This document shows positions 4,450 through 20,460 of a stretch of 64,000 nt of DNA, piece after piece. This DNA comes from Streptomyces sp. F001 (GTDB lineage: Bacteria; Actinomycetota; Actinomycetes; Streptomycetales; Streptomycetaceae). The notes under the pieces were generated by a model, which worked only from the letters and a program-made list of their open reading frames with translations, was not told the DNA's origin and did not search any database. A program made the translations under genes and the position numbers. The stretch spans positions 124,001-188,000 of the forward strand of contig NZ_QZWF01000001.1 in assembly GCF_004187715.1 (NCBI RefSeq), read 5' to 3'. Positions within the stretch are counted from its first letter, which is position 1, and each line of letters begins with the position of its first letter.

Positions 4450-4912
4450 CGGGCCGTTCCTGCTCTTCAGTACAGGATCGAGGGCAGACAGGAACCGGCC
4501 GGGCGGCAGCGACGAGGCGGCTGCGCAGGCCTGTGGCATCCGGCTCGGTGCCCGGAGGCAGGCGATGCCCGACCTGGGAACTTGTATCCGTGAAGGCCGG
4601 GAAACGGCGAGCCGTTGGTACTCGGCGAGCGCGCCCGGTGGAATGCGCGCATCGGGCAGCGCTCCGCCATGCCGCGTGACGGCTGCGACGTACGAGGTTG
4701 TAGTGCCTCGCCCGCGCCGACGTGGCGAGGGTTCTTGCGACATGAAGGGCCGGCCGTCGCGTGGCCGGGGCAAGGGACCGTAGGTTCACATCCTGTCGTC
4801 CCGTGACTGCTCAGGTCCGTTGATCACGCGGGGAGTGGCGGTAGCCAGAGCTTCCCGGTGAACACGTCGCGGAGCACGGCGAGGAAGTTTTGTCCGTGCT
4901 TGCGGGCAGTGG
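4450..4912. other. Gene-free stretch of about 460 bp
   Basis: No convincing coding region on either strand; the open frames here have no family likeness. It holds a possible hairpin (GTTCCTG at 4456-4462 with CAGGAAC at 4489-4495) that could end transcription of the preceding gene. It also holds a stretch near 4779-4802 that looks like the T-arm and 3' acceptor half of a tRNA, for which I could not build an intact tRNA. Confidence 0.5.
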
Positions 4913-5497
4913 TCACAGAGAATCTTCATATCCTGCTCGGGGCTTGGCGAAGAAGCACTGGCCGTCTTTACCATCTTCTCCGTCCTTGCCGTCCTCTCCG
5001 TCCTTTCCATCCTTGCCGTTCTTGCCGTCTTTACCGTCCTTTCCGTCCTTGCCATCCTTTACGTCATCGCCGCACCAGACGGCATCCCCGCCGTCTCCGC
5101 CGTCTCCGCCGTCTCCGCCCTTGGCGCTGCCGTCGCTGTCGCCGCCGTTCCCGCCGTTCCCGCCGTTCCCGCCGTCGGCGCTGCCGATGCTGTCGCCGCC
5201 GTTCCCGCCGTCTCCGCCGTCTCCGCCGTCTCCGCCGTCGGCGCTGCCGTCGCTGTCGCCGCCGTTCCCGCCGTTCCCGCCGTCTCCGCCGTCGGCGCTG
5301 CCGTCGCTGTCGCCGCCGTTCCCGCCGTCTCCGCCCTCTCCGCCGTCATCGGTGAAGGAGCCGGTGTGCACCACCGCCGCGGAACTTGGCGACATCGGCG
5401 TCGCGAACGCACTCACCGGCAGCGATACGGCGCCGGCAGCCAGAACAGTCGATGTGGCAGTCAACGCCAAACGCAGCGTCCAGCTGATTTTGCCCAT
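4913..5497 (-). CDS. Secreted glycine-rich GGX-repeat protein with collagen-like tail
   Basis: A 194-residue exported protein with an uninterrupted frame. Residues 1-33 form a signal peptide ending VSAFA. Residues 51-138 are GGX triplet repeats (X mostly D, N or E) punctuated about every 18-20 residues by DSDGSAD-like spacers. Residues 147-180 form eleven collagen-type triplets, mostly KDG and EDG, flanked by Cys142 (VWCGDD) and Cys181 (GQCFF). The start ATG at 5497 is set by the signal peptide and by AAAGGA a few bases upstream; longer upstream open frame is not coding. A relative lies at 6880 on the other strand, beyond a transposase remnant. Possible roles are cell-surface scaffold, adhesin or matrix protein; the function is not known. 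Confidence 0.75.
   Translation of the reverse strand: MGKISWTLRLALTATSTVLAAGAVSLPVSAFATPMSPSSAAVVHTGSFTDDGGEGGDGGNGGDSDGSADGGDGGNGGNGGDSDGSADGGDGGDGGDGGNGGDSIGSADGGNGGNGGNGGDSDGSAKGGDGGDGGDGGDAVWCGDDVKDGKDGKDGKDGKNGKDGKDGEDGKDGEDGKDGQCFFAKPRAGYEDSL
4958..5059 (-). repeat. Collagen-like triplet repeat
   Basis: Eleven G-X-Y-type triplets (KDG, KNG, EDG) encoded by near-identical 9-base units. They are highly charged, as in bacterial collagen-like proteins where Lys/Asp/Glu replace hydroxyproline stabilisation. Confidence 0.8.
5084..5347 (-). repeat. GGX repeat block of the first glycine-rich gene
   Basis: Tandem units of about 54-60 bases encode (GGX)3-4 followed by GGDSDGSAD or GGDSIGSAD. 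The DNA units are almost identical, so copy number may vary between strains and may be miscounted by assembly. Confidence 0.8.
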
Positions 5498-5639
5498 GGA
5501 ATTTTCCTTTCCCTCAGACTTCTTCTCGATGGGCCTCACGCCTTTCTGATGAGGCTGCGCATCCAGTAAGCCCGACCCGACGACTTTCCTCATGCCGCGA
5601 AAAAACGTGACTTGACATGACTGCTCACGACGGTTCGTG

Positions 5640-6690
5640 ACGTGCGGAGGTCCCCGAAGCCGCCGTTCTCGGACAGTCCGTTCCGCAAGCCCGCGCCGCG
5701 CTCGCAGCGCACAGCTACCGGCCGCAGGCCCGGCGCCCAGCCCGGGCTGCGGGAACAGTCTCGACGCGGACGCGGAGCCGGTGAGCTTCGCCCGGGGACA
5801 GGTCTTCGACCTGCCCGATCCGCGCCTGACGGTGACCGAGCACCGGATGCTGAAACTGTGCTGCGGCTGCGGGCACACCACTGGCGCGAGCGTGCCAAAG
5901 GGCGTGCGCGCTGACCCAGTACGGCCCCGGCGCCCACGCCCTGGCCGTCTACCTGCTCGTGCAGCAGCACCTGCCGAGCGCTCGCGGCGTGGACGCGGCC
6001 GCCGACCTGCCGGCGGGTTCTTCTCCGAGGGCTTCCGGGATGCCGCCCTACGCCGGGCCTGTACCTGCTACCAGCGCTACGGCACCGCCCGCGCGCTGTG
6101 CAACGCCCACCTGCTGCGCGACCTGGACGCGATCACCGGCCAGGACCCGGTCGGGCGGGCAGGTGTGGGCCAAGGCCGCCGCCGACGCACTCACCGAGGC
6201 GAACACCGCCTGCGAGAGCGCCCGCGCTGACGGTCGCGACACCGTGCCCAGGACCTGGTCCGCGAGCTGACCCGCCGCTACGACCACGCCGTGGCCTGCG
6301 GGAAAGCGGCCCACCCCCACCGGCCGGAACCAAGAAGACCTTCGCCCGCCAGGTTGCCGACCGCGTAGAGCGCCGCCGAGCCGACATCCTGCGCTTCCTG
6401 CACGACCTCGCCGTCCCCTTCACCAACAACCAGGGCGAGCAGGACATCCGCACGGTCAAGGTCCAGACGAAGACCAGCGGCGGCCGGCGCACCCTCGACG
6501 GTGCCAACCGCCGGCTCCTGGTGTGCTCCTACCTCTCCACCGCCCGCAAGCACGGACAGAACTCCCTCGCCGTGCTCCCGAACGGCCGGAGGCTGTCGGC
6601 GGCAGTCGCGTGCTTTTACCCGAGGCCTCCGGCTCCGTCAAGCCCCGAGTCCTCGGAACATGACCAGGCTTTGCCGGTCAGGCCTAATTG
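5640..6690 (+). pseudogene. IS66-family transposase remnant
   Basis: Pieces of an IS66-type transposase occur in order but in different frames. The N-terminal segment has PPFSDSPFRKPAP and a GRRPGAQPG motif. The zinc-binding segment has RGQVFDLPDPRLTVTEH, CCGCGHTTG and then QYGPGAHALAVYLL. The C-terminal segment has LAVPFTNNQGEQDIRTVKVQ, SGGRRTLDGA and YLSTARKHG, the IS66 C-terminal signature. The extreme N-terminus and part of the central catalytic region are missing and several frameshifts are present, so no active enzyme is encoded. I did not find clear terminal inverted repeats. It sits between the two glycine-rich genes and may have helped rearrange them. Confidence 0.8.
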
Positions 6691-6879
6691 AAGTGCGGGC
6701 CTCACCGGAAAGGAAACGAGGCAGCACGGTAAGGCGGAATTCCTCACCGAGGATACTCCCTCTCACTGAACCGCTGGTTATCCAGGTATGACGGTCCCGG
6801 TCGAAACCGGTCCGCCGACTGGCACCCTGAATTTCCGGGGAATGCCAGAAATCCCCTCTGTATCAGAAGGAGAAAATCC

Positions 6880-7473
6880 ATGACTCATGACGTTCACACT
6901 CACAACGAGGCCCAGCCCAAGCGACGGGGCGTCCGCCTCGCGATGCTTTGCGCCGCGACCGCTCTGGTCTCTGGGGCTGTCGCCCTTCCGGCGTCCGCCT
7001 CGACGCCGGTCATGAGCCAGCCCACGACCGCGATCTCCTTCGTCACCGACGGTGGAAAGGGCGGCGCCGGTGGTGCCGGTGGCAACAGCGACGAGGGCGC
7101 CGGTGGTAACGGCGGTGCCGGCGGTGCCGGCGGCAACAGCGTCGAAGGCGACGGCGGCGACGGTGGCCGTGGTGGCGACGGCGGCGACAGCGACGAGGGT
7201 CCCGCTGGTGGCGGCGGTTCCGGCGGTGCTGGCGGTTCCAGCGTCGAAGGCGACGGCGGCGACGGTGGCCGTGGCGGCAACGGCGGCGACAGCGACGAAG
7301 GCGGCGGCGGCGGTGGCGGTGGCGGCGGTGGCGGCGGCGACAGCGTCGAAGGCGACGGCGGCAAGGCGGCCGTGGCGGCAACGGCGGCGACAGCGACGAA
7401 GGCGACGCGGCGACGGCGCGGCGGCGGTGGCGCGGCGACAGCGAGGAAGGCGACCGCGGCGAACGGCGGGTAG
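6880..7473 (+). CDS. Secreted glycine-rich GGX-repeat protein, 3' end corrupted
   Basis: The N-terminus (MTHDVHTHNE...) is followed by a signal peptide with KRRGVRL and a hydrophobic run, cleaved near ALPASAS. Residues 57-162 are GGX repeats broken by NSDEG, NSVEGD and DSDEG spacers. The junction STPVMS-FVTDGGKGG matches ATPMS-FTDDGGEGG of the gene at 4913, so the two are paralogues. Start: ATG at 6880 behind AGAAGGAG. Near 7365 the frame slips; removing the slip continues the GGRGGNGGDSDEG pattern to about 7450. There the DNA becomes the reverse complement of a GT87 mannosyltransferase gene, so the natural C-terminus is missing. Confidence 0.7.
   Translation: MTHDVHTHNEAQPKRRGVRLAMLCAATALVSGAVALPASASTPVMSQPTTAISFVTDGGKGGAGGAGGNSDEGAGGNGGAGGAGGNSVEGDGGDGGRGGDGGDSDEGPAGGGGSGGAGGSSVEGDGGDGGRGGNGGDSDEGGGGGGGGGGGGGDSVEGDGGKAAVAATAATATKATRRRRGGGGAATARKATAANGG
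7048..7445 (+). repeat. GGX repeat block of the second glycine-rich gene
   Basis: Degenerate repeats encode GGDGGRGGNGGDSDEG-like units of about 16-18 residues, partly reduced to a pure glycine run near 7300-7345. The repetitive DNA is a likely site for indels and mis-joins. Confidence 0.75.
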
Positions 7474-7673
7474 GTGAAGCCGTACGTGGTCCCCGGCACC
7501 CGGTAGTCGTAGATGCGTCCGCCGTCGTGGATCCAGCTGTGGATGGTCCCGTGGTAGACGCGCAGGTCGAACCAGTCCCGCAGCAGCGGCACCGTCGCGG
7601 TGAAGACGGTCACGGCGGCGGCGAGGACGAGCACGAGCAGCGGTCGCCCGCGGTCGGTGCGGGGCGCCCTCAT
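7450..7673 (-). pseudogene. GT87 (DUF2029) mannosyltransferase, N-terminal fragment
   Basis: Seventy-odd residues from ATG 7673: a basic start, a first membrane helix (LLVLVLAAAVTVF), LRDWFDLRVYHG, then GGRIYDYRVPGTTYGFTYPPFAAV. The D-L-R-V-Y and TYGFTYPPFA motifs are typical of the lipid-linked GT87 mannosyltransferase family, which transfers mannose from polyprenyl-phosphomannose outside the membrane. A full member has about 400 residues and ten or more helices; here coding stops near 7450 where it meets the glycine-rich gene. The ATG overlaps the MptB-like stop as ATGA (7670-7673), so the pair was translationally coupled. Natural deletion or assembly mis-join are both possible. Confidence 0.7.
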
Positions 7674-9057
7674 GCCGTACGTCCAGGACCGGGACCTGCG
7701 CGGCCTGGTGGGCCTGCCACAGCACGACCACCGCGAGGACCCCGCCGGAGACGGCCAGCAGCAGCTGCCCGAGGTCCGCCGGGCCGCCGCTGGGCAGCAC
7801 GGCGAGCGCGAGGACGCAGGTGACGGCCGCCACCCGGTGCCGTACCCAGGTGGTGGGCGCCGCGGCGGCGATGAGGAACAGCCCCCACAGCGCGTACCAG
7901 GGCCGGATCGCCGGGCCGAAGGCCGCGACCGCCGCCAGGCTGAGCCCCAGCGCGTACACCGGGCGGGGCGCAGCCGCAGCCATATGACGAGCAGGGCGAT
8001 CGCGGTGATCGCCAGTCCGGCCGTGCCACACCGGGACGGCGAGCGGCGCCAGATCGCTGCCCAGCCGTTCCAGCAGGGCGCCGGTGGCACGGCCGAGCAG
8101 GCTGGTGAGCGCCCAGTTGTGCGGCGAGACGGGCGTGTTGAGAGCGGCGATCCAGCCGTACCGGTGCCGGCCACGGCCGTCGCGGTGACCGTCGTGGCCG
8201 CGGACGCGGCGGCGGTCGTCAGCACCGCCCGTACCGGGTGGCGCCCCGCGCGCATCTGCAGCACGACGATCGCGGCGAGTCCGAGCACGGCGGGCGCCTT
8301 CACCAGCGCGGCCAGTGTGATGAGTACGGCGCCCAGGACCGGCCTGCGGCCGAGCGCAGCGACCAGGCCGACGCCGAGCAGGCCGAGCATCATGGCGTCG
8401 TTGTGTGCGCCGGCCACGAGGTGCAGCAGCACCAGCGGGTTGAGGGCACCGAGCCACAGCGCGGCGGCCGGGTCGGCACCGCTGTGCCGGGCGAGGCGGG
8501 GCAGCGCGGCCGCCATCAGGGCCACGCCCAGCAGCGCCAGGAGCCGCATCCCCATGAGGCCGGCGGGCAGTTCGCCGCTGGTCAGGCCGGACAGCGCGGA
8601 GGCGGCGGCGAGGAACACCGGGCCGTAGGGTGCCGCGGTGTGCTGCCACACCGGGGACACCTCCTCGGCGAGCGGGCCGCCGAGACGGGACGGTCCGTGC
8701 GCGTACACGTCGATCTGGGCGTCCACCATGGCCCCTTGGGCGAGGTAGCTGTAGACGTCCCGGCTGAACAGCGGCGGGGCCAGCAGCAGCGGGGCCGCCC
8801 AGACGGCGAGGACCAGCAACAGCGCGCGCGGCGTGGGCGGTTCGGGACTGCGGATCAACCGGCCGAGCAGGGCCCAGGCCGCGATCAGCAGGACGACGCC
8901 GAAGTACACGCCGACCAGCCCGAGAGCGGCGCCGGCCGAGGGGCGACAACAGCTCGCGGACGGGAAGGGCTCCGGCCGTCTCACCGCCCAGTGCGAGAAA
9001 GGCGGTACCGGCCAGGCCGAGTACCTGACAGCGGCGGAGATCGACGGAGGAAGCCAT
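7670..9057 (-). CDS. MptB-like polyprenol-phosphomannose-dependent mannosyltransferase (frameshifted)
   Basis: A multi-helix membrane glycosyltransferase read over at least four frameshifts. It starts MASSVDLRRCQVLGLAGTAFLALGG. Next come GLVGVYFGVVLLIAAWALLG, APPLFSRDVYSYLAQGAM with the conserved acidic D near the first loop, YAHGPS, AAPYGPVFL and VAGAHNDAMMLGLL, which are hallmarks of MptB-type alpha-1,6-mannosyltransferases. Later segments include SPHNWALTSLLG and AFGPAIRPWYALWGLFLIAAA. Members extend mannose chains on the outer face of the membrane. The stop at 7670 overlaps the next gene's start. An earlier ATG at 9066 is possible. The indels look like short G/C-run undercalls. Confidence 0.75.
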
Positions 9058-9146
9058 GGCCAACACTCGGTCAGCGTGTCAACGCCGGGTGGCCGGAAAA
9101 CGACGTTCCCCTTCCGGTGGGAGACCTGCGCATGACCTCCGTGTGA

Positions 9147-10059
9147 TCAGAACACCGACAGTCCGGTGAGCGTCGTGAAACGGTCCAGGGCAGCGACCCC
9201 GGCGACCGAGTTGCCGCGCTCGTCCAGCCCGGGCTCCACACGCACAACGTGCAGCGTCCCGGCACGACGGCGACGATTCCTCCGCCGACGCCGCTCTTGC
9301 CGGGCAGGCCGACGCGTAGGCGAAGTCGCCGGCCGCGTCGTACGTTCCGCAGGTCAGCATCACGCGTTGACCTGTTTGGCCTGGCTGCGCGTGAACAGCC
9401 GCGAGCCGTCGGCGCGAACGCCGTGCCGGGCCAGGAAGGCGGTGGCGAGGGCGAGGTCGGCCAGGAGGCCCGGACGGAGCACTGCCTGAAGTACTGGTCG
9501 AGCAGCAGCGGCACCGGGTTGTCGATGTTGCCGTACGAGCCATGAAGTGGCCAGGGCGCGTTGCGGTCGCCGTGCGCGGCTTCGGAGGCGGCGACCTCGT
9601 GGTCGAAGTCCAGGCCGGGGTTGCCCTCTCGGTGCGCAGGAAGTCGAGAGTGCCCGCCGCGTCGCCGGTACGGTCTGGAGGCGGTCGGTGACGACCAGCG
9701 CACGGCGTTGATGAACGGGTTGCGCGGAATTCCGTTCTCGTACTCCAACTGGACCAGGGAGTTGAACGGGTTGCCGACGGCTCGCGGCCGACGTTCCCAG
9801 AGTTCGTCGCCCTCGCGGGCCAGGTCGAGGGCGAGGTGAAGACCTTGGTGACGGACTGCGTGGAGAACGGCTCACGCCAGTCCCCCACGCCGTACACCGT
9901 GCCGTCCAGCTCCGCGACGGCCATGCCGAAGCGGCGCGGGTCGCAGGCGGCGAGCGCCGGGATGTAGTCGGCGGGCCGGCCACGTCCGGGCGTGTGCTCG
10001 ATCTCCTCGGCGATGCGCTTCAGGACCGGTTCGAAGGTCAGCGACGACGTCATGATCAA
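9147..10059 (-). CDS. glsA: Glutaminase A (frameshifted)
   Basis: A serine-dependent beta-lactamase-fold glutaminase that converts Gln to Glu and ammonia. Readable segments in order are [30 protein letters not shown], the active-site serine-lysine block [91 protein letters not shown] and a C-terminal [13 protein letters not shown]. About 300 residues, as expected. Several single-base losses shift the frame. GGAGG lies 7 bases before the TTG at 10059 and too far from the ATG at 10053, so TTG is the better start. It is the last gene of the Asn/Asp/Gln cluster. Confidence 0.85.
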
Positions 10060-10099
10060 CAGTGTGCCTCCGCATCAGGTCCTGACGCGCATCCGCAGT

Positions 10100-11484
10100 T
10101 CAGACGACGGGCGAGCCGCTGCCCGCGACGACCTCCGCCGCAACAACGCGGCCAGCCGCTCGGCCGGCAACAGGCCCCTCTCCAGACGAGTTCGCGACCC
10201 CTCGCGCCGGTGGCCAGGGCCTCCTTGGCGATGTCGGTGGCGGCCGTGTACCCGATGGCGGGTTGAGCGCGGTCACCAGGCCGATGGAGTTCTCCACGCT
10301 TGCGCGCAGGGCCTCGTGTTGGCGGTGATGCCGTCCACGCAGCGCTCGCGAGGGCGTGGCAGGCGCTCTCGAGATGGGTGATGCTCTCCGACAGGGAGTG
10401 CAGGATGACCGGCTCGAAGGCGTTCAGCTGAAGCTGTCCGGCCTCGGCGGCCATGGTGATGGTGACGTCGTTGCCGATCACCTCGAAGGCGACCTGATTG
10501 ACGACCTCGGGGATCACCGGGTTGACCTTGCCGGGCATGATGCTGGAACCGGCCTGCACGGGCGGCAGGTTGATCTCACCGAGGCCCGCGCGCGGCCCGG
10601 AGGACAGCAGGCGCAGGTCGTTGCAGCTCTTCGACAGCTTGACGGCGATCCGCTTGAGCACGCCGGACATCTGCACGAACGCCCCGCAGTCCTGGGTCGC
10701 TCGACCAGGTTCGCGCGGTGACCAGGGCAGCCCGGTGATGTCGGCGAGATGGCGGCGAGCGGCTTCCGCGTACCCGGCGGGGGCGTTCAGCCCCGTCCCG
10801 ATCGCGGTGGCGCCCAGGTTGATCTCGTGGATCAGCTCGACGGCCTCGGCGAGCCGGCTGGTCCTCGTCGAGCATCACCGCGTACGCCGAGAACTCCTGT
10901 CCCAACGTCATCGGCACCCGTCCTGGAGCTGGGTCCCCATCTTCAGTACGTCGCGGAACTCGACGCCTTGCGGCGAAGGCGTCCTGCAGCACGGACATCG
11001 CCTTGAGCAGACCGCGCACCGCGAACACCGTCGCGATCTTGACGCGTCGGGTAGACGTCGTTGGTGGACTGGCCGAGGTTGACGTCCTCGTTGGGATGCA
11101 GGTACCGGTACCGGCCCCTGGCGTGCCCAGCAGCTCCAACGCCCGGTTGGCGACGACCTCGTTGGCGTTCATGTTGGTGGAGGTGCCGGCACCGCCCTGG
11201 ATGACGTCGACGACGAACTGGTCGTGCAGCTTTCCGGAGCGTATCTCCCGCAGGCGCGACGATGGCGTCCGCCTTGTCCGAAGGGAGCAGCCGAGTTCCT
11301 CGTTCGCGAGAGCGCGGCCTCCTTCACGGCGGCGAGGGCGTCGATCAGATGCGGGTAGGCGGAGATCGGCGTGCCCGTGATGGGGAAGTTCTCCGTGGCG
11401 CGCAGGGTGTGGATGCCCCAGTACGCCTCGGCGGGACGTCGCGGTCTCCGAGCAGATCGTGTTCGCTGCGGGTGGCGCGGTCAT
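10100..11484 (-). CDS. aspA: Aspartate ammonia-lyase (frameshifted)
   Basis: Aspartase of the fumarase/aspartase superfamily: L-aspartate to fumarate plus ammonia. Visible family blocks are [12 protein letters not shown] near the start, [92 protein letters not shown], and the signature [12 protein letters not shown] with the mobile-loop serine, followed by [15 protein letters not shown]. About 460 residues. Frameshifts are frequent, the first within the first ten codons. Start: ATG 11484 with AGAGGA five bases upstream. It lies 31 bp after the asparaginase stop, so Asn goes to Asp and then fumarate from one transcript. Confidence 0.88.
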
Positions 11485-11515
11485 GAAGTCCTCTGTGGTG
11501 TCGGAGGTGTGCGAG

Positions 11516-12509
11516 TCAGGCGTACGAGGCGGAGGGCAGCGGATCGAGCGCGCGCACCGGCCGGACGCTGCCGACCCTGTCCGCCGCCGAGCAGCGGCTC
11601 GCCCGCGAACTCGGCGAGCAGCGCCGGGTCGACGCCGGCCCGGCCAGCGCCGCGCGCGACCGATCCGGCCCGTCGCGTCGGCATCTTCACGGCGACGGTC
11701 CGGCCGTCCGGAGTGCGGCGACCTGCACGCCTTCGAAGCCGTCCTTGCGAGCAGTCCGGGCACGGCCCGCATCAGCGCGCCACGTCCCGCCGGACCGCGA
11801 GGCCATTTCGGCGTGCTCGCGCATCGCATCGGCGACCCGCGCCTCGGGGTGCCGGGAGCGGCGGTGGTGATACGGGGCGGCCCGCGCAAGGCCGTGCAGG
11901 GAGACGGAGAACAGGGGTGCGCCGCAGCCGTCGACGGCACCCTGGCGACCCTGGCCGGTGGTCCTCGACGATCTCGGCGATGGCCTGCTGGAGGGAATGG
12001 GCGGGGTCGAGTAGTCGTCGAGGGACCAGCCGTTGAGCTTGGCCGTGTAGAGCATGGCGGCGTGCTTGCCGGAGCAGTTCTGGGCGACCGGGAGGGCATA
12101 CGGCCCTCACGCACCCAGGCGTCCCGGACGACCGGGTCGAACGGCAGGTCGGGGACGTTGCGCAGATCGTCCTCGTCGAGTCCGGCGGTGTCGAGATGCG
12201 CCGGGTGCCGCGAGATGCGCTCCTCCCCGGAGTGGCTGCGGCGCGAGCGAGAGCAGCTCGCCGTCGAGCGGAAGTCCGGCCCGCACCATGGCGAGCGGCC
12301 TGGACGGCTTGAGTGCCGACCGGGGTAGAAGGGGCCTCGATGTCGCCGAGCTGGAGCTGGACCTCGCCGTCCGCACGAGGACGACGACGGAGCCGTAGTG
12401 GATGCCTTCGACCATCCCGCCGCGTATGAGATGGGCGACGGGGGCGTGGAGGGGCTCACGGACTGGGGTGCGTCCCGACGGAACTGCTGTACATCACTGC
12501 CTGGTTCAT
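11516..12509 (-). CDS. L-asparaginase II family protein (frameshifted)
   Basis: Hydrolyses asparagine to aspartate. Segments match the actinobacterial asparaginase II family (not the tetrameric L-asparaginase I/II fold of E. coli): GGMVEGIHYGSVVVL, FYPRSALKP, MVRAGLPLDGELLSLA, DEDDLRNVPDLPFDPVVRDAWVREG, KHAAMLYTAKLNGWSLDDY, VDGCGAPLFSVSLHGLARA, ARVADAMREHAEMASG, KDGFEGVQVAAL, and an end at VRALDPLPSASYA. Many single-base indels. The start is uncertain: MNQA from ATG 12509 fits related proteins but needs a frame shift to reach the first conserved block. First structural gene after the regulator. Confidence 0.8.
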
Positions 12510-12689
12510 CGGTGAGGTGTCGTCGGCCGGGGCGCGGTTCACGCGTCGGCCCTGGTGGAGGTGGTGCGTATCCGGCCGCGCATGCCGTCCCCCGCGACCA
12601 GCGTCGCGACGATCAGCGGCAGGCACAGCACGTCTCCGGCGTCGACATGGACGGAACGTTTCTGCACAGCGTCGTGCAGGACTGCTCGC

Positions 12690-13348
12690 TCACGCCTCGG
12701 GTCCGCCTTCCGTGGGGTGTCCGTGCGCGCTGAGCGCACGATGTCGGTGAGGGTGGTCTCGACCCGGTCGTGGTGGGACATGGCCTCGACGCGTCGCGCT
12801 CGGAACCGTCGATCAGCGCCTCGACGATCGCCCGGTGCTCACGGTTGGACTGCTCCCGGCGTCCGCCCAGCTCGTTCAGGAACGCCGACTGGCGGGCCAG
12901 CGCGTCCCGGATCTCCTCGATGACCCGGCGGAACACCGGATTCTCGCGGCCTCGGCCACGGCCAGGTGAAGAGGTGTCCATCGCGACCCACGCGGTGGTG
13001 TCCGTCTCCGCTCCATGCGGTCCAGCAGGTGGCGAGGTGGTCGAGTTCTCCGGTGCGGCGCAGCGCCGCGTACCCGCGACCGGATCTCGACGTGTCGGCG
13101 CACCTCCAAGAGTCGCCGGCCGAGTAGTCGCCGAACGTGGGCTCCTCGACGCTGCTCGCGACGACGAAGGTGCCCTTGCCGGTCTTGGCCACGGTCAGCC
13201 CCATCGTCTGCAGGGCGCGCAGGGCCTCCCGCAGCACGGGCGGGAGACCTCGAGCGTGCGGCAGAGCTCCGCCTCGGAGGGGAGCTTGTCGCCGATCGCG
13301 TACTCGCCGCGCTCGATGGCGCCGCGGAGGTGTGAGCACCGCTTCCAT
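12690..13348 (-). CDS. GntR-family (FadR/FCD-type) transcriptional regulator (frameshifted)
   Basis: About 220 residues. The winged helix includes LRGAIERGEYAIGDKLPSEA and VLREALRALQTMGLTVA, then GKGTFVVA. The C-terminal ligand-binding FCD helices include LLEVRRHVEI, ALRRTGEHLDHL, VAMDTLFHLAVAEAA, FRRVIEEIRDALARQ, QSNREHRAIVEALIDG and AMSHHLDRVE, with His residues suited to metal or carboxylate binding. It ends TEGGPEA. Start: ATG 13348. It precedes the asparaginase-aspartase-glutaminase genes in the same direction, and a dyad lies just upstream, so autoregulation and control of amide amino acid catabolism are likely. Three or more indels. Confidence 0.85.
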
Positions 13349-13374
13349 CGCGCTGACGCGCCGCGGCCCACTCC

Positions 13375-13397
13375 ACCTGTCTGGCTGTCTGACAGGT
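13375..13397. promoter_or_regulatory. Probable operator of the FadR-type regulator
   Basis: ACCTGTC at 13375-13381 and GACAGGT at 13391-13397 form a perfect 7-base inverted repeat. Nested in it is CTGTCTGACAG (13385-13395), an 11-base palindrome of the TGTC-N-GACA type often bound by FadR/FCD regulators. It lies 27 bp upstream of the regulator ATG. Confidence 0.5.
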
Positions 13398-13552
13398 CAC
13401 AGGGGTGATACTCCGGGTGGCCGGCGGTGGTGTCAAGCGGGCCGAGCGCGCCGCAAACCGGTGGACCCCCGTTCCGGCAGTGGGGCTACCCGCACCCCGC
13501 TCGGGGGAAGACGTCATTCTGCTGCCGGGAAATGGCTCACATACTGAAGCGC

Positions 13553-14573
13553 ATGGCCAATCCAATGGTGCTCCCAGGGAACTCGTCCACGCGAAGAACA
13601 AGGCGCACAGCAAAGGGAAGCGACTTTTCCGAACTGTCGCGCCGCATAACCGAAGCCGGCTTCTGCGCCGCCGTTGTATTACACCGTGCGTTTCGGGGCG
13701 GTGACCTCGCTCTTGCGGAGGCATCGGGGCGTTTCTCGCGCTGGGGACAGCTGGAGCCAGCTGATCGTCGCCGCTTTCCTGGCCGTGATCTTCGGCCAGC
13801 TCGCGCTGGCGGCCCATGACCTCGCCCACCGGCAGTCTTCTCCGTCGGCGTCCCAGCGAGGCCGGCGGTCTGCTGGTCGCCGATCTGCTGCGGGCATGAG
13901 CTACGGCTGGTGGATGAACAAACACACCCGGCACATGCGAATCCGAATCACGAGGGAAAGGACCCCGACGTCTCTCCCGACATTCTGGTGTGGTCACAGC
14001 GGCAGGCACGCAAGCAAAGGGCTGCCCCGTTTCATCGAAAGCACCAGGCCATGCTCTTCTTTCCGCTGCTCACCCTGGAAGGGCTGAATCTGAGTTTCGC
14101 CAGCTTCAAGGCGCTGGGGAACGCGTCGTGAAACGGCCGGTGCTGGAGACGCTGCTCGTCGTCCATTTCTCGTGTACTTCGGTGCCCTGTCACCGTGCTC
14201 TCCCCTGCCAAGGCGCTCGCCTTCGTCGCCGTCCACCAGGGCCTTTCGGATCTGTCTCGGCTCGGTGTTCGCCCCAACCACAAGGGGATGCCGATGATCA
14301 GGAGGGGATGCGGCTGGACTTCCTGCGTCGCCAGGTCTCACCTCGCGCAACGTCAGGGCGGTGCGCTCATCGTCTTCATGGGCGGGCTCAACTACCAGAT
14401 CGAGCACCACCTCTTCCCCAGCATGCCGACGCCGGCGCTCCGCAGGGCCCAGGTCATCACCGAGCGGTACTGCCCGAGCTGGGCATCCCGTACCACCAGA
14501 CGGGCTGCTCGCCTCGCACCGAGAGGCGCTGCGCCACCTCAGGAGCGTCGAGAGCCGCTGCGCGCGGGGGTGA
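13553..14573 (+). CDS. Membrane fatty acid desaturase (frameshifted)
   Basis: A di-iron acyl desaturase of about 340 residues that introduces a double bond into membrane acyl chains. Segments: [51 protein letters not shown] (first His box HDLAH), [14 protein letters not shown] (second box), [78 protein letters not shown] (third box QIEHH) and LGIPYHQTG. All three His boxes can be reconstructed. Six or so indels interrupt it. The start is uncertain among ATG 13532, 13553 and 13562. Convergent with the fluoride channel operon. Confidence 0.85.
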
Positions 14574-14629
14574 CTGACTCGCCGGCGCCGTGCGGTGCGG
14601 AGGGCGCGGTCTTCGCCCCCGCACCCCCG

Positions 14630-14990
14630 TTACGACCACACGCCTCGGCGATCGCCACCCCCACGAACGCCGCGCCGAGACCCGCGCACGCTGCCACTAC
14701 GTTGACGGCGGCGTAGAGCCCAGGCCCCCGTCTCGGCCAGCCGCAGTGTCTCGTACGAAGGTCGAGTACGTGGTCAGGCCCACACAGGCCGGTGCCGAGG
14801 AGCAGCTGAAGGGGAGCCCGCGCCCGCCGCGGCGCGCCGGCCAGCAGGCCGAGGACTGCAGAGCCCACGACGTTGACCGCGAAGGTGCCCCACGGGAAGA
14901 CGGAGTCGTGCCGGGACTGCACCGCCCGTCGGCGAGATAACGGAGCGGGGCGCCGATCATGGCGCCCGCGACGACCAGCAGCCAGTTCAC
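14630..14990 (-). CDS. crcB: CrcB-type fluoride channel, second copy (frameshifted)
   Basis: A small four-helix Fluc/CrcB fluoride channel subunit. Segments: [19 protein letters not shown], the hallmark [27 protein letters not shown] followed by TTYSTF (the conserved pore TTFS-like stretch), and [24 protein letters not shown]. Fluc channels are dual-topology dimers; two adjacent copies may form a heterodimer. Start: GTG 14990, preceded by GGGGGAG and overlapping the DUF190 stop as GTGA. As sequenced, the frame reads on to 14539; one lost base would place the stop at the TAA at 14630. Confidence 0.85.
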
Positions 14991-15353
14991 GACGACGTCT
15001 CCCCCTCGGTCCCGATGCGCCACGGCCGACGTACCTGATGACCTCGCAGCCCTCGAGGATCACGAGTCCCTCGGTGACCAGTTCGTCGAGCTGCGGCAGG
15101 AAGGCCCGGACGCGCTCCTCGGTGTCGACGATCACGACAGCCACCGGCAGGTTCTCGCTCAGGGACAGCAGCCGGGAGGTGTGGATCACGGACGAGGCGC
15201 CGAAGCCCTCGATGCCCTTGAAGACGCTGGCGCCCGCCAGCCCCGCCGCGCGGCCCGGTGCACGATCTCGGAGCAGAGGGGTCTGTGGTGCCAGGTGTCG
15301 TTCTCGCCGACGAAGACGGTCACGCGCGTAGCGCTGCCGGTCAGCCGGGTCAT
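14987..15353 (-). CDS. DUF190 protein of the fluoride operon
   Basis: About 120 residues, related to PII-like DUF190 proteins that often accompany crcB. Segments: [14 protein letters not shown] near residue 10, SEIVHRA, then [31 protein letters not shown] and [18 protein letters not shown]. One or two frameshifts. Start: ATG 15353 with GGAGG five bases upstream and an ATGA overlap with the crcB1 stop. The end GTEGETSS overlaps the crcB2 start. Coupling on both sides suggests a role in assembling or controlling the channel. The ligand is unknown. Confidence 0.85.
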
Positions 15354-15811
15354 CGCTGCCTCCGTGTCAGGAAACGACGGGTCGCGGTCGCGCCGAGCCA
15401 CACCGCGGCGAGCGCCGCCGACACGGTCGCGGCCAGATACGCCAGGGCGGTGCGCGGGTGGCCGGCGTCGACCAGCTGCTGAATGTCGACGGCGTACGTC
15501 GAGAAGGTCGTGAAGCCGCCGAGCACGCCGGTGCCGAAGAAGGGGCGGACCAGGCGGTGGGCGACCCAGACGTCGGTGATGATCACCATGAACACGCCGA
15601 TCACGGCGCAGCCGGTGACATTGACCCAGAAGGTCGACCAGGGGAACCCGCCCGTCTGCGCGGGCCACCACACCGAGGCCGCATACCGGGCCGTCGCGCC
15701 GATCGCGCCGCCGACGACGACCACCGCGACGACGGGCACCTGGGCACGCCAGGCGCGCCGTCGTGGGGGACGCGTGTCCAGGGGGAGGCTCTCGGTCTCC
15801 GGGGCTGTCAT
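15350..15811 (-). CDS. crcB: CrcB-type fluoride channel, first copy
   Basis: 153 residues, clean frame. A cytoplasmic N-terminal tail of about 25 residues precedes four membrane helices: [41 protein letters not shown] (with the conserved N), [19 protein letters not shown] (the pore TTFST motif) and [19 protein letters not shown]. It expels fluoride passively. Start: ATG 15811 within a CTGTCATGACAG palindrome, behind GTAGGAG. First gene of the crcB-DUF190-crcB operon. Confidence 0.92.
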
Positions 15812-15823
15812 GACAGTACGTCT

Positions 15824-15869
15824 CCTACTCGCCGGGCCCTGACTGCGGGCGCCTGTCGTCGCAAGTAGG
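15824..15869 (-). promoter_or_regulatory. Leader hairpin that can hide the crcB ribosome binding site
   Basis: On the minus strand CCTACTTGC (15869-15861) pairs with GCGAGTAGG (15832-15824) over nine positions, including one G-U. The second arm contains most of the GTAGGAG Shine-Dalgarno sequence of crcB1, so the folded form would block translation. The loop is 28 bases. I do not recognise the conserved core of the known fluoride riboswitch. Confidence 0.45.
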
Positions 15870-15973
15870 GACCGTTGGCGGCACCGACGCCGCGGTTCGG
15901 GTACGGCGGGCCCCACCGCCGCGCCGCGCGGGAACGCGGCCCCCGCCAGACTAGCTCCGGGGCCGCGCACCCG

Positions 15974-16196
15974 TCACTTCGAGGCGGTGCCTCGCACACC
16001 GCGACGCCGCGCTCCCGGACACTGCCCAGGATCAGCAGGTCGCCCCCTGCACAGACGCTGGTGATCACGCGGAAGCCGGTGCGGCGGTGGGTGAGGTGGT
16101 GGACGACGTCACCGTCGTCGACCGCCAGGACACCGGCCGCGGCCGGAGGGCGGACGGGGGCGTGACCCTCGGGCGGGTACCCGCCGTGGCCGCTTT
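15974..16196 (-). pseudogene. SMP-30/strictosidine synthase-like C-terminal fragment
   Basis: A stretch of about 70 codons reads GGVLAVDDGDVVHHL, then RTGFRVITSVCAGGDLLILGSVRE and GVAVCE. This resembles the last blade of SMP-30/strictosidine-synthase-like beta-propellers (pattern: V-L-A-V-D, T-S-V, L-x-L-G-S). There is no start codon or earlier propeller blades, because the ArsR-type gene ends only a few bases upstream. I read it as a remnant, with one frameshift near the end. Identification is weak. Confidence 0.3.
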
Positions 16197-16198
16197 CC

Positions 16199-16484
16199 CT
16201 ACCAGCCCTTCTCGAACATCCGGGCCACCTCGGCGATCCGGACCTCGTCGCGGCGGTAGTAGGTGCGGCGCCGGACACGCTTGGCGCGCAGCATGCCGAG
16301 GTCCGCGAGGAGGGTGAGGTGGGTGTGGGCCACCGCGCGGCGGACGCCGAGCTTCGCGGCGACGGCGTCGGCGGAGACCCCGTCCGCCACGAGGTCGGTG
16401 TGCCGCCGGCGGGGAAAGTGGGCGACCGGATCCTTCAGCCACTCCAGGATGCGCAGGCGGGTGTCGTTGCGGAGTCCTCAGCAT
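16199..16484 (-). CDS. ArsR-type winged-helix regulator (frameshifted)
   Basis: About 95 residues. Segments: LRILEWLKDPVAHFP at the start, VSADAVAAKLGVRRAVAHTHLTLLADLGMLRAKRV (helix-turn-helix) and YYRRDEVRIAEVARMFEKGW at the C-terminus, typical of an ArsR-like family in Streptomyces. No cysteine metal-binding motif is visible, so it is probably not a metal sensor. Start: ATG 16484 with frameshifts in the first codons and near the linker. Whether it controls the downstream crcB operon in the same direction is open. Confidence 0.7.
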
Positions 16485-16614
16485 TACGTCCCCCTCGGTC
16501 CGGGCCCTCTATGTGCGGCTTGCCCACTGTGGCGCCGGTCAAGCCGCCGTGCTCGGCACACCGCCGGACTTGACCGGGATCGAACGGACCTTCGCCTCAA
16601 TGTCACGGAACAGC

Positions 16615-16658
16615 GAGGACCCGGCCGCGGAGGTACGCACTCGCACGGCCGGGTCCTC
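16615..16658. terminator. Strong inverted repeat downstream of the galactanase
   Basis: GAGGACCCGGCCG (16615-16627) and CGGCCGGGTCCTC (16646-16658) form a perfect 13-bp stem with an 18-base loop, about 85 bp past the galactanase stop. Likely a terminator usable on both strands. Confidence 0.65.
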
Positions 16659-16741
16659 GGGTCCCGTGATCCGCCTGGGAGCAACACGATGGGGCCTCAC
16701 CTCAGCCCCGCCGACCCCCGGCGAATCCCCGCCGAATCCCC

Positions 16742-18298
16742 TCAGCGGTGGCTGAACCACGCCATCGCCGGCAGCGCCCTGTTCGTAGCCGAACAGGGCC
16801 TGGTTCTCCCAGCCGTTGCCGGAGGAGGCGTCGGTCGGGTCCCAGCCGTTGCCGTTGACGGCGGTCCAGGTCGCCTCCCAGTAGAAGACGCCGAGGCCGC
16901 GGCCGTTCGGGACGGCCTCCACGATGCTCGCGATGTCCTTCATCCACTGCGTCTGCCCGGCCGTCGAGGCCGCGTAACCGGACACGAGCTCACCGGAGAG
17001 GTCGATGATGTTCTCGTGCGCGTCCTCGCTGTCCAGACGGAAGGGGTAGGCCGTCTCGGCGACGAAGACCGGCTTGCCGTAGCGGGACGCCGCGTCGTCC
17101 AGCGTGTCTGGAGTCGTGGAGCGTGCCGTGCCAGTAGCCGTAACGACAGACCGATGGCGTCGAACTTCACGCCGCCCGCCACGGCGCTGTCGAACCACCA
17201 GCGGGTGCCGGACAGGTCACCGCCCTTGGCGAGATGAAGCGCGACGGTGGTGGACGAGTTGACCGCCTTGACCGCGTCGTATCCACTGTTGATCAACCCG
17301 GCGAGCTGCGTCCAGTTGTCGGTGGATCCCTCGTTCCACAGCATGCCACCGTTGATCTCATTGCCGACCTGGACCATGTCGGCGGTGGTGCCCTGTGCCT
17401 TCAATGCGTTCAACACGTCGTACGTGTGGTTGTACACGTCCGTCTTGAGCTGACTGTACGAGTGGCCGCCCACGCCGCCGGCTTGCTCTGGGCGCCCGGG
17501 TCGGCCCATGTGTCCGAGTAGTGGAAGTCCACCAGCAGCTTCATGCCCTGCGCCTTGACGCGCTTGGCCATCGCGAGCACGCGCGTCTTGTTGTTGTAGC
17601 CGTCGGCCGGGTTGACCCAGACCTTCAGGCGCGCGTAGTTCATGCCGGACGACTTGAGGATGGCGAGGGCGTCGCCGGTGGTGCCGGAGCTGTTCTTGTA
17701 GACCCCACCCTTGGCCTCACTCTTGGCGAGGGACGAGATGTCGGCACCCTTGATCGACGTACCGGACGTGCCCGACGTGAAAGGTCAGGTCGTCAACATT
17801 GATCCAGTTACCCGCGTTCGCGTCCTGTTGATGCTGATGGTGCACTGGTTGTTCGTCACATTGACCGGCACGACGATCCGGATCCACCCACTGGCGGACA
17901 CCGGCAGATCCGTGCGCTGCTCCGCGCTGCCACAGTTCTTCAGGGCTATGTACGCGGATTTCTGGCCACCGCCGGAACGGACCCACGCGGTCAGCTTGTA
18001 GGTGCCGTTGGCGAGCCCGGAGAGGTACTGGTACGTCTCCACCTTGTAGGCGGTGGACGCCCAGTGGCTCAGCCGGTAACTGCCGCTGCGGCCACCGGCT
18101 TCGACGTACGAGGCGCCGGTCGAGCCGTACTCGGACCAGCCGCTCGGCGTGGCCGCGCCGGTGCCGTCGGCCTCGAACCCGCCGTTGGTGAGCGTGCTCG
18201 CCGCAGCCGCGGTCGGGGCGGGCAGGGGCGGTGAGGGCGAGCCCGGCCGCAAGCGGCAACAGCAGGGCTCTGAGGGTGCCTCTGGGATGGAACTTCAT
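16742..18298 (-). CDS. ganA: Secreted endo-beta-1,4-galactanase, GH53, with N-terminal CBM (frameshifted)
   Basis: About 520 residues. Cuts beta-1,4-galactan in pectin side chains. Signal peptide: MKFHPRGTLRALLLPLAAGLALT. Next is a carbohydrate-binding module (about residues 40-175): LTNGGFEADGTG, GWSEYGSTG, YQYLSGLANGTYKLTAWVRSG and WINVDDLTF; CBM61-like modules are found on GH53 enzymes. The catalytic barrel has MNYARLKVWVNP, MKLLVDFHYSDTWADP, MVQVGNEINGGMLW (acid/base Glu in GNEI), FDAIGLSYYG, VFVAETAYPF (nucleophile Glu) and GVFYWEATW. It ends MAWFSHR. Several indels. It follows the beta-galactosidase in the same direction and probably feeds galactooligosaccharides to it through the divergent importer. 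Confidence 0.88.
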
Positions 18299-18359
18299 CG
18301 TCCGTCGTCCCTTCCGACGTGATGGGGATGGGGGATGCCCCTCTCGTGGGGATGAGGGG

Positions 18360-18401
18360 CCCCTCCGCCCGCGGCTCTCGTGGCACACACGGGCGGAGGG
18401 G
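18360..18401. terminator. Hairpin between beta-galactosidase and galactanase
   Basis: CCCCTCCGCCCG (18360-18371) and CGGGCGGAGGGG (18390-18401) form a perfect 12-bp stem with an 18-base loop. It starts 8 bp past the beta-galactosidase stop and before the galactanase ATG. It may terminate or attenuate transcription, or protect the upstream mRNA. Confidence 0.6.
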
Positions 18402-18408
18402 AGTCGGC

Positions 18409-20421
18409 TCAGCCGTCGAGTCGTACGACCCGTACGGCTCCGCCGGAACCGCCAGGCGGCCGGCGGCGCGTTCGCCGGTCAGCAGCTCGGTTCCGGACGT
18501 GTCCAGCGGCACCTTGGCGTCGGCGGCGGTGTGGTTGACGGCGAACAGGAAGGTGCCCGACTCGCCGGTGCGGCGCACGACTTCGACATCGTGGGGCAGG
18601 TCGGTGCGCGGGGCGATGCGCGCGTCCTCGGCGGCCCGGCCCAGCACCGCGTCGAGGCCGTCGGTGCGAGGCGGGTGGAGACGTACCAGGCGGTGCCCTC
18701 GCCGAGGCGGTGCCGGGTGACGGCGGGGCGGTCGGCGGTGAGGCCGTCGACGTAGGTCCACACCGTCTCGGCGCCGCGCGGCACCACGAACTCCGTCCAC
18801 ACGTCGGCGGCTCGCGCGAGGTCGGCCGTCCGGGCCGGCGATCCGGACCTTCTCGCCCTTCAGGAGCGGCGAGAACTCCTCCACCGTCAGGCCGAGGATC
18901 TCCCGCAACGGGCCCGGATAGCGCGCCTCGTGGACGGCGTCGTGCTCGTCGACGATGCCGGAGAAGTACGACACGACGAGGGTGCCGCCGTGCTCGACGT
19001 ACTCCTTGAGGTTGAGCCCGGCCGCCTCCGTCATCAGATACAGCGCGGGCACGACGACAAGGGGATACGCCGACAAGTCGGCTTCGGATGGGCGAAGCGA
19101 CCGTGAGGTGGCGGTCGTAGAGCACCTCGTAGAAGGTGTCGGCGCGTTCGCGGGCGTCGTGGTCCTCGCTGGGGCGCCAGTCGAGGTTCTGCGCCCACCA
19201 GGAGTGCCAGTCCCACAGGACGGCCACGTCGGCCTGGGTGCGGGTGCCGCGGATCGGGCCCAACGTGTCGAGGACGCGCCGAGTTCGACGACCTCGCGCC
19301 ACACGCGCGTGTCGGTGCCGCCGTGCGGCAGCATCGCCGAGTGGAACTTCTCCGCGCCGCGCCGGGACTGCCGCCACTGGAAGGAACATGGCGCCCTCGG
19401 AGCCGCGCGCCACATGCGCGAGGGAGTTGCGGGCCATCTGGCCGGGCGCCTTGGCGGGGTTGCGGGCCTGCCAGTTGACCCGAGGTGGAGTGCTCGAGGA
19501 GCAGCCAGGGGGCGCCGCCGGCGACGGAGCGGGTGAGGTCTGCGGCCATCGCGAGGTTGACGTGGGTGCGGCGGCCGTCGGTGATCAGGTAGTGGTCGTT
19601 GGTGACGAGGTCGACCTCGCGGCCCCAGGCCCAGTAGTCGAGGGAGTCGCACTGGCTGAGCGCGGTCATGAAGTTGGTCGTGACCGGCACGCCCGGTGAG
19701 AGGCGGTGCAGGATGTCCCGCTCCATGCGGAAGTTCTCGCGGATGGTGACGTCGGCGAACCGCTTGTAGTCCAGTGCCTGCCCGGGGTTGCCGACGGTGG
19801 GGGTGAGGCGCGGCGGGTTGATCTGCTCGAAGTCGGTGTACCGCTGGCCCCAGAAGGCCGTGCCCCAGGCCTCGTTGACCGCGCCGACCGTCTCGTACGT
19901 GGCCTCCAGCCAGCGGCGGAAGTGCGCGGCGCAGGAGTCGCAGTAGCAGCGGAGACGGGGACGCCGTACTCGTTGTGCACGTGCCACATCGCGAGGCGGG
20001 GTGGTTGCCGTAGCGGTCGGCGAGCCGGGGTGGTGATGTTCGCGCGGCCGCCGGTAGTCGGCGTTGCTGTGACAGATGGCGCCGCGCGAGCCGAGATCGT
20101 AGCGGGTGCCGTCGGCCGTCACCGGCAGCGCCTCGGGTGGGCCCGGTAGAACCACACCGGCGGCACCACGGTGGGCGTGCGAGGTCGACGCGGATGCCGT
20201 TCTCGTGCAGCAGGTCGAGCAGGCGGTCGAGCCAGCCGAAGTCGTACATCCCGGGTTCGGGCTCCAGGAGCGCCCAGAGAAGATCCCGACACTCACCATG
20301 GAGACGCCGGCCTCCCGCATCAGCCGGACGTCCTCCTGCCAGACGGTTTCCGGCCACTGCTCGGGGTTGTAGTCCCCACCGAAGGCGAGCCTGGTGAGGC
20401 CCTGGGGGTGGTCTCCGGCAT
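18409..20421 (-). CDS. ganB: Beta-galactosidase, GH42 (frameshifted)
   Basis: About 670 residues, cytoplasmic, hydrolyses imported galactooligosaccharides. Segments in order: RLAFGGDYNPEQWPE, VSMVSVGIFSWALLEPEPG, GIRVDLATPT, HVHNEYG (acid/base Glu in HNEY), CYCDSC with AAHFRRWLE (zinc-binding cysteines of the family), INPPRLTPTVGNPGQALDYKRF, VTTNFMT, WLLLEHSTS (nucleophile Glu in LEHS), MFFQWRQSRRGAEKFHSAM, LVVVPALYLMTE, GGTLVVSYFSGIVDE, and a C-terminal beta domain ending VRVVRLDG. Start: ATG 20421 with GGAGAG upstream. About eight indels. Flanked upstream by an operator and divergent importer genes. Confidence 0.9.
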
Positions 20422-20446
20422 GGATCTCTCCGTTTAATCGATCATT

Positions 20447-20460
20447 TGGGAACGTGCACA
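20447..20460. promoter_or_regulatory. LacI-type operator, beta-galactosidase side
   Basis: TGGGAACGTGCACA matches the symmetrical TGTGAACGTTCACA pattern at 12 of 14 positions. It lies 26 bp upstream of the beta-galactosidase start. Confidence 0.55.

What the first reader, a model, noticed from the sequence alone, without database searches (positions are those of the whole stretch)
4913..7473. Two inverted paralogues of a secreted GGX-repeat protein
Both proteins have a signal peptide, a similar junction (TPMS / TPVMS, then FTDDGG / FVTDGG) and the same GGX-plus-acidic-spacer rhythm. Dense GGX repeats with acidic DSDG/DSDEG spacers suggest extended, possibly metal-binding surface fibres. I know of no described function for this arrangement in streptomycetes.
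Basis: partly seen in the sequence, partly recalled or inferred. Interest (0 to 1): 0.7.

Follow-up and report, generated by a model that had tools for sequence, protein, structure and literature searches.

The report
Streptomyces secreted polyglycine-helix slab proteins
Two oppositely pointing neighbour genes in a Streptomyces genome encode related glycine-repeat proteins with likely export signals; an intact relative is predicted to fold into a flat bundle of polyglycine helices like springtail antifreeze proteins, so they would likely form part of an outer coat.

Summary
Both genes are real, but the second is cut by the assembly. P0001 (4913-5497, minus) is an intact frame. P0002 (from 6880, plus) is reliable only to 7365; from 7451 the window is an indel-ridden second copy of another contig of the same genome, joined inside P0002's repeat.

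In relatives, A opens a cluster of three glycine-repeat genes (A-B-C, 14 of 15 named loci), mostly near a Ser/Thr kinase and a SpoIIE-type phosphatase. Both window genes share an upstream inverted repeat with the family. Most likely these are secreted coat or matrix slabs; antifreeze activity is possible but untested; metal-binding fibres are not supported.

The parts
4913..5497 (-). P0001: exported-type GGX protein, 194 aa, ATG at 5497, preceded by GGGAAAGGAAAA (likely RBS)
   Evidence: Translation; paralogue of P0002; no Pfam family.
5402..5497 (-). P0001 signal peptide (predicted by eye, cleavage after SAFA)
   Evidence: Sequence; aligns with the leaders of P0002 and three other genes of the same genome.
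5087..5344 (-). P0001 GGX tract: five strands (four of 11 residues, one of 14) with acidic turns DSDGSAD, DSDGSAD, DSIGSAD, DSDGSAK
4955..5074 (-). P0001 tail: Cys142 to Cys181, enclosing 11 collagen-type G-X-Y triplets, mostly GKD; resembles the Cys-bracketed tract of gene B in relatives
   Evidence: gene B alignment. Pfam Collagen not listed at E <= 1; NCBIfam SclB weak, 15.7 bits against a cut-off of 325.
5533..5555 (-). Inverted repeat GCCTCATCAGAAAGGCGTGAGGC upstream of P0001
   Evidence: shared with P0002 and with 24 fetched relative loci.
4824..4916 (-). IS66 transposase C-terminal relic that begins at the P0001 stop codon
   Evidence: 46 bp, 91%, inverted match to 6537-6581 inside the IS66 relic. 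The 30-aa piece alone gave no Pfam match.
5637..6691 (+). Broken IS66-family transposase relic between the two genes
   Evidence: DDE_Tnp_IS66 36.8 bits, cut-off 23.1; zf-IS66 19 bits, below its cut-off of 27.3.
6699..6722 (+). Inverted repeat GCCTCACCGGAAAGGAAACGAGGC upstream of P0002
6880..7365 (+). P0002: trustworthy part (162 codons) of an exported-type GGX protein; six strands with alternating SDEG / SVEG turns
   Evidence: homologues.
7366..7450 (+). Frame-shifted continuation of the P0002 repeat (GGRGGNGGDSDEGD is read in another frame)
7451..64000 (.). Indel-ridden second copy of contig C2 (C2:154219 down to about C2:97,270), joined within the P0002 repeat; probable assembly artefact
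   Evidence: 56,447 identical, 15 mismatched, 498 missing and 28 extra bases in the aligned stretches.

Best explanation
P0001 and P0002 are two paralogues of a glycine-repeat protein family that I found only in Streptomyces, and they are predicted to be exported by the Sec pathway, to fold into flat two-layer bundles of antiparallel polyglycine-II helices and to act likely as rigid coat or matrix proteins outside the cell.

Shown: the genes, their paralogy, the strand-and-turn rhythm, conservation of the family, the gene cluster and the shared upstream inverted repeat.

Predicted: export (signal peptide read by eye) and the fold (AlphaFold2 of one intact relative; the window's own P0001 gave no usable model).

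Inferred: every third residue (X) points outward while the glycines pack inside, so each bundle has one polar face and one smooth face of small residues. In this strain the turns carry acidic groups, and P0001 adds a Cys-bracketed GKD tract that may form a short triple helix or a disulfide-closed arm. In relatives the first gene (A) is followed by two more signal-peptide glycine-repeat genes (B, C), so the natural product is probably a mixed extracellular layer. The nearby kinase and PAS/GAF/SpoIIE/HATPase phosphatase suggest control by a phosphorylation relay (untested).
For: Family and leader: 30 of 392 genus genomes at E <= 1e-4 with P0002; 34 of 392 at E <= 1e-8 with the profile (some of these match by the leader or the tail alone). 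Sixty glycine positions or more are invariant over 19 sequences.

Two-faced design: X residues polar in 0.49, 0.77, 0.75, 0.86 of cells for strands 1, 3, 5, 7 and 0, 0, 0.26 for strands 2, 4, 6; 1 of 35 arrangements reaches this. Paper PMC10235112 (passages) gives the same rule for springtail proteins, with 3-6-residue loops.

Coding: dN/dS of the GGX region 0.10-0.51 in 8 of 8 pairs.

Cluster: A-B-C in 14 of 15 named loci, kinase in 12, phosphatase in 13. B lies within 260 bp of A in 24 of the 27 genomes that match B (counted by hand).
Against: P0001's own model is poor (pLDDT 47.6, pTM 0.30). Only one of L065's five models exceeds 70. Foldseek scores are weak (best E 0.076, probability 0.05, TM 0.11). 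No scrambled-sequence control was run, so AlphaFold may favour this fold for any GGX sequence. The alternation breaks at strand 8; over all nine strands 9 of 126 arrangements do as well. P0001 shows no alternation. Nothing shows expression, secretion or a coat role.
Confidence: 0.5

Rival explanations
1. The family consists of secreted ice-binding (antifreeze or ice-recrystallisation-inhibiting) proteins that reached the springtail solution independently: the smooth face of small residues binds ice and protects the mycelium on freezing.
For: The only PDB matches of the model are springtail antifreeze proteins. X residues alternate small/polar between successive strands 1-7, the rule given for those proteins in PMC10235112 (passages). 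Both have signal peptides and short loops.
Against: The small face is Gly/Ser/Ala with an almost all-glycine strand 4 and few Thr or Val, whereas the springtail face is described as alanine-rich with Ser, Thr and Val. The alternation fails at strand 8 and in P0001. A shared fold shows no function. No link to cold was seen or tested.
Confidence: 0.13
2. The glycine tract is an unstructured, hydrated, acidic linker or brush, and the GGX rhythm only keeps the chain flexible and soluble.
For: P0001 model pLDDT 47.6. Glycine content 0.37-0.56 and pI 4.05-5.58 in the five mature proteins computed.
Against: Strands keep their length and register, glycines are invariant at the fixed positions (0.908-1.000 per strand), turns keep hydrophobic residues, and X residues alternate; a random brush would not need these. 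Passages of PMC10216338 and PMC13243192 report folded PGII models or simulations for the comparable PGRS domains.
Confidence: 0.2
3. One reading: acidic, calcium- or metal-binding surface fibres, with Asp-rich spacers as ligands in an RTX-like or dockerin-like way.
For: P0001 has 38 Asp+Glu against 12 Lys+Arg, three DxDx[DSN] motifs and two GGXGXDXUX motifs. Some relatives fit the RTX nonapeptide once per strand (L024, five motifs).
Against: Motifs recur with the roughly 17-residue strand+turn unit, not every 9. No Ca-binding repeat family was listed by Pfam at E <= 1. Most relatives have hydrophobic turns in place of the acidic ones.
Confidence: 0.12
4. The window pair is a decaying leftover of IS66-driven rearrangement with no present role; the working copy is the A-B pair on contig C66.
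For: IS66 relics begin at the P0001 stop and lie between the genes. A third copy on C5 is degenerate. C66 starts inside a GGX tail of the same SDEG type and carries gene B.
Against: P0001's frame is open with a likely RBS and the family's upstream repeat. P0002's break may be only an assembly fault, in which case P0002 and the C66 tail may be one gene.
Confidence: 0.2
5. The ORFs are spurious by-products of GC-rich repeats.
For: Many overlapping ORFs exist in the region.
Against: Homologues with the same leader and register in at least 30 of 392 genomes, dN/dS below 1 in the GGX region of 8 of 8 pairs, conserved RBS and upstream repeat.
Confidence: 0.02

Closest known systems
Springtail (Collembola) polyproline/polyglycine-II antifreeze proteins, e.g. 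7jjv (Granisotoma rainieri) and 3bog (snow flea)
   Different: No sequence match in the PDB sequence searches; Gly/Ser/Ala face instead of an Ala/Thr/Val-rich one; hydrophobic or acidic turns; bacterial gene cluster; no activity known.
Mycobacterial PE_PGRS proteins (PGRS domain as PGII sandwich)
   Same: GGX repeats with hydrophobic turns, predicted PGII sandwich, actinobacteria, exported, variable number of strands (PMC10216338, passages). L064's A is 61 residues shorter, about four strands.
   Different: No PE domain (no Pfam family); an ordinary-looking signal peptide instead of a PE domain for export; nine strands rather than 7-54; a genus without mycomembrane (recalled).
Bacterial collagen-like proteins (e.g. 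Scl2/SclB)
   Same: P0001's tail has 11 G-X-Y triplets rich in GKD; weak SclB similarity (15.7 bits). Eleven of the 19 database hits of P0001 carry PF01391.
   Different: Pfam Collagen not listed at E <= 1, far below the SclB cut-off, no LPXTG anchor seen, and the tract is enclosed by two cysteines.
RTX / haemolysin-type Ca-binding repeats
   Same: Gly-rich, some GGXGXDXUX motifs.
   Different: Spacing of about 17 instead of 9 residues; no Pfam match.

Membership tests
PPII/PGII bundle fold (springtail AFP type) | Two-layer bundle of antiparallel PGII helices, tested on an intact family member (L065) | tested here: met
PPII/PGII bundle fold (springtail AFP type) | Same fold in the window's own P0001 | tested here: inconclusive
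   pLDDT 47.6, pTM 0.30; P0002 was not modelled on its own.
Springtail antifreeze proteins | X residue alternates small/polar between successive helices | tested here: inconclusive
   Met for strands 1-7 (1 of 35 arrangements), broken at strand 8 (9 of 126 for all nine), absent in P0001.
Springtail antifreeze proteins | Flat face rich in Ala with Ser, Thr, Val | tested here: not met
   Small-face strands 2, 4, 6 are Ser/Gly/Ala, Gly, and Gly/Asn/Ser.
Springtail antifreeze proteins | Ice-binding activity | not testable with these tools
   Needs a purified protein.
Springtail antifreeze proteins | Sequence homology | tested here: not met
   Profile A4 against PDB sequences: 0 matches at E <= 1; phmmer of L065: one unrelated match at E 0.19.
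PE_PGRS | N-terminal PE domain | tested here: not met
   No Pfam family at E <= 1 for P0001, P0002 and five of the six relatives or paralogues scanned; the sixth (L048) matched only an unrelated model below cut-off. The N-terminus is a signal peptide by eye.
PE_PGRS | GGX-type PGRS repeat with hydrophobic turns | tested here: met
   In the relatives; in the window pair the turns are acidic.
Collagen-like proteins | Pfam Collagen (PF01391) or SclB model above cut-off | tested here: not met
   PF01391 not listed; SclB 15.7 of 325 bits.
RTX Ca-binding repeats | Tandem nonapeptides every 9 residues | tested here: not met
   1-5 isolated motifs per protein; no Pfam match.
Streptomyces family A (defined here) | Shared leader, GGX strands, upstream inverted repeat | tested here: met
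   P0002 and P0001 are found by the A profile (E 3.6e-25 and 1.6e-14); both carry the repeat.
Streptomyces family A (defined here) | Gene B directly downstream | tested here: inconclusive
   P0001 is followed by an IS66 relic; P0002 is cut by the contig join; B is on C66 after a GGX tail.

The most novel reading that the evidence does not exclude
Streptomyces evolved, independently of springtails and of the PE_PGRS proteins, a dedicated system for building an extracellular layer out of polyglycine-II bundles: three secreted glycine-repeat proteins in one cluster (A, a nine-helix two-faced slab; B, a Cys-clasped collagen-type arm with an exported helix-turn-helix; C, a Cys-laced GGX protein), switched by its own kinase/phosphatase pair, with the smooth face of A structuring water or ice. 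The window shows the system being remodelled: an acidic-turn version and an A-plus-collagen-arm fusion (P0001).
Probability: 0.17. Interest if true: 0.85.

Novelty: new variant of a known kind. Interest (0 to 1): 0.6.

Why it matters
According to the passages read, the polyproline-II bundle antifreeze fold has been called unique to Collembola (PMC10235112), and its bacterial counterpart has been discussed for mycobacterial PE_PGRS proteins (PMC10216338 and PMC13243192). A Streptomyces family with an ordinary signal peptide, about 200 residues, a fixed nine-strand register and a conserved cluster would give a small, harmless, genetically tractable system in which to test what such bundles do outside a cell. 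It would also give coat biology a candidate beyond chaplins and rodlins (recalled). The report further shows that most of this window is an error-laden duplicate, which affects any other finding right of 7451.

Tried and rejected
Homology: the P0001 protein search gave 19 hits, 11 of them with PF01391, driven by GKD repeats as far as the sequences that I read show. The P0002 leader alone gave 46 candidates and none at E <= 0.1. The A2 profile gave four partial proteins (109-121 aa), two of them named 'hypothetical protein, partial [Streptomyces sp.]'. Viral contigs: 69 pattern stretches, none a relative. The first genome-contig scan with glycine-rich patterns found none in 593 stretches; a leader alignment then found 15 loci.

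Fold: the viral library gave five matches, all E above 6. Gene C's profile against PDB sequences hit a lipoyl acetyltransferase at E 0.00074 (7b9k), which I take for a low-complexity match but did not pursue.

RNA: no Rfam family for window 4700-7600 at E <= 5 or, near the genes, for six relative loci; L057 matched mir-278 below its cut-off near 9176-9245, away from A. The upstream hairpin has five predicted pairs and only one pair with a two-sided change (in L048), so covariation is weak. In the own genome the loose pattern gives 14 hits against 12 for the reversed control, so it is not specific; by inspection only the two window copies have the AAAGG loop.

Terminator-like hairpin after A: 12 of 13 loci at -29 to -40 kcal/mol in 75 nt; L060 -13.6 (the 75 nt end inside its stem); C66 -25.1; downstream of P0001 -22.6 without the long stem.

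PE_PGRS, RTX, collagen and springtail-AFP membership were each rejected or left open in the table. Gene C was not found in the own genome, but without a positive control this shows nothing.

Limits: genus-wide searches scored only 8-11 candidates per genome, so counts are lower bounds. No scrambled control for AlphaFold. No signal-peptide predictor. The 34 of 392 includes leader-only or tail-only matches (e.g. G243, G405, G070). The signal-peptide region of the pair L065/L067 had dN/dS 1.11 (1.5 synonymous differences). L065 and L066 are two contigs of one strain, so 15 loci are 14 genomes.

Papers: passages only of PMC10216338, PMC13328622, PMC13243192, PMC10235112; all others seen as listings. 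That I found no description of this family rests, of which 22 and 75 showed only 25 of 715 and 15 of 169 papers.
Full report
What is in the window. P0001 (4913-5497, minus, 194 aa) and P0002 (from 6880, plus) are both there with signal peptides (read by eye) and GGX tracts. P0001 finds P0002 in its own genome at E 1.8e-10, 57% identity. Neither has a Pfam family; the only NCBIfam row is a weak SclB similarity of P0001 (15.7 bits, cut-off 325). The tract of P0001 is five strands with acidic turns followed by Cys142, 11 G-X-Y triplets and Cys181. An IS66 transposase relic begins at its stop codon and a larger IS66 relic lies between the genes.

The right half of P0002 is an assembly problem. The repeat goes out of frame after 7365; the expected GGRGGNGGDSDEGD is read in another frame. 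From 7451 to the end of the window the sequence is a second copy of the same genome's contig C2, in reverse. In the aligned stretches 56,447 bases are identical, 15 mismatch, 498 are missing from the window copy (457 of them G or C) and 28 are extra. The copy continues in C1 to 284,610, which corresponds to C2:48, the end of that contig (C2:80,001-84,999 was not compared, and 53,918-53,977 did not align). The C2 copy of a GT87 glycosyltransferase is an open 471-codon frame where the window copy is broken. Few substitutions and many one-base losses look like unpolished long-read sequence. A real but unpolished duplication is not excluded. Contig C66 starts inside a GGX tail with the same SDEG turns and then carries gene B, so it is a plausible continuation of P0002; this is inference.

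The family. P0002 matched 30 of 392 genus genomes at E <= 1e-4. A profile of 19 intact relatives matched 34 of 392 at E <= 1e-8 (some by leader or tail only) and 20 of 293 genomes of the order, all in one of nine genera. The 15 loci from the named collection are all titled Streptomyces, among them S. cirratus, S. avidinii, S. toxytricini, S. diastatochromogenes and S. olivochromogenes. The intact members run: leader RP-RRGFR..LPAS..AAP, nine strands GGXGGXGGXGG (longer members have more), hydrophobic turns, and a C-terminus SIF (14), SLF (4) or GIF (1) of 19. The window pair differs by acidic turns. In P0002 the turns alternate SDEG, SVEG over six turns, which is what one expects if successive turns lie at opposite ends of antiparallel strands (sequence; interpretation inferred). 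The GGX region has dN/dS 0.10-0.51 in 8 chosen pairs.

The neighbourhood in relatives. In 14 of 15 named loci A is followed by B and C (the fifteenth, L063, ends after A); a Ser/Thr kinase is held in 12 of 15 (ten directly after C, two upstream) and a PAS/GAF/SpoIIE/HATPase phosphatase in 13 of 15. L065 and L066 are two contigs of one strain. In the genus sample 27 of 392 genomes match B, and in 24 of these an A match lies within 260 bp (counted by hand; exceptions G012, G325 and the own genome, where the A tail before B was seen only by reading). B has a signal peptide, a Cys-bracketed GGX/GEPGKPG tract and a transposase-type helix-turn-helix that passes a Pfam cut-off in 2 of 4 proteins scanned. 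C has GGX strands with Cys turns and no Pfam family. In the own genome the pieces are scattered: B on C66, a kinase homologue on C2, a degenerate A beside the LuxR and phosphatase homologues on C5.

Regulatory features. The inverted repeat GCCTCACCGGAAAGGAAACGAGGC, or a close form, lies upstream of A in 24 fetched loci (some are the same genome fetched twice) and of both window genes; a longer block upstream is conserved too. Covariation is weak (one of five pairs with a two-sided change), Rfam has no match, and in the own genome the loose pattern is no commoner than its control (14 against 12). A strong hairpin follows the A stop codon in 12 of 13 loci.

Reading. The best-supported account is an exported polyglycine-II bundle family, likely a coat or matrix component, with the window pair as a locally remodelled, acidic-turn branch. 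Antifreeze function, disorder and metal binding are kept as rivals with the evidence stated. The novelty is a new bacterial family and gene cluster built on a known fold.

Noticed in passing
window 7451-64000: Second, indel-ridden copy of the same genome's contig C2 (498 bases missing, 28 extra, 15 mismatches in 56,988 aligned columns); apparent frameshifts or pseudogenes here are suspect.
   Followed up: yes
L059:6706-7176, L071:251-724, L041:703-1362: Gene B: protein with a signal peptide that combines a Cys-bracketed GGX/GEPGKPG collagen-type tract with a transposase-type helix-turn-helix (HTH_28 or DUF1153 above cut-off in 2 of 4 scanned); an exported DNA-binding-like domain is odd.
   Followed up: partly
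L059:7342-7902 and other loci: Gene C: GGX strands with repeated CAGxCNGSANGG turns, no Pfam family; possibly a disulfide-laced bundle.
   Followed up: partly
L005:1171-1665 (own genome C7:353836), L055:2691-2996: Paralogues with a similar leader but His/Asp/Trp-rich repeats (WKDRHDHDW; KHHHHY) in place of GGX: same signal, different repeat.
   Followed up: no
L048:1498-2271: Leader-sharing protein with NAQGGDASGVGTNTGG repeats; its upstream hairpin has the only two-sided base-pair change.
   Followed up: no
L064:6001-6408: The A protein of S. diastatochromogenes is 61 residues shorter, about four strands, with both ends kept.
   Followed up: no
L071 (own genome C66:1-96), L038, P0022-P0025: Contigs or protein records that end inside the GGX tract, suggesting that these genes often break assemblies.
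   Followed up: no
L067, L065, L064 upstream of A: A 13-nt insertion in the loop of the upstream inverted repeat (CCGGAACGGAAATCCGG type) that itself contains a small palindrome while the outer stem is kept.
   Followed up: no
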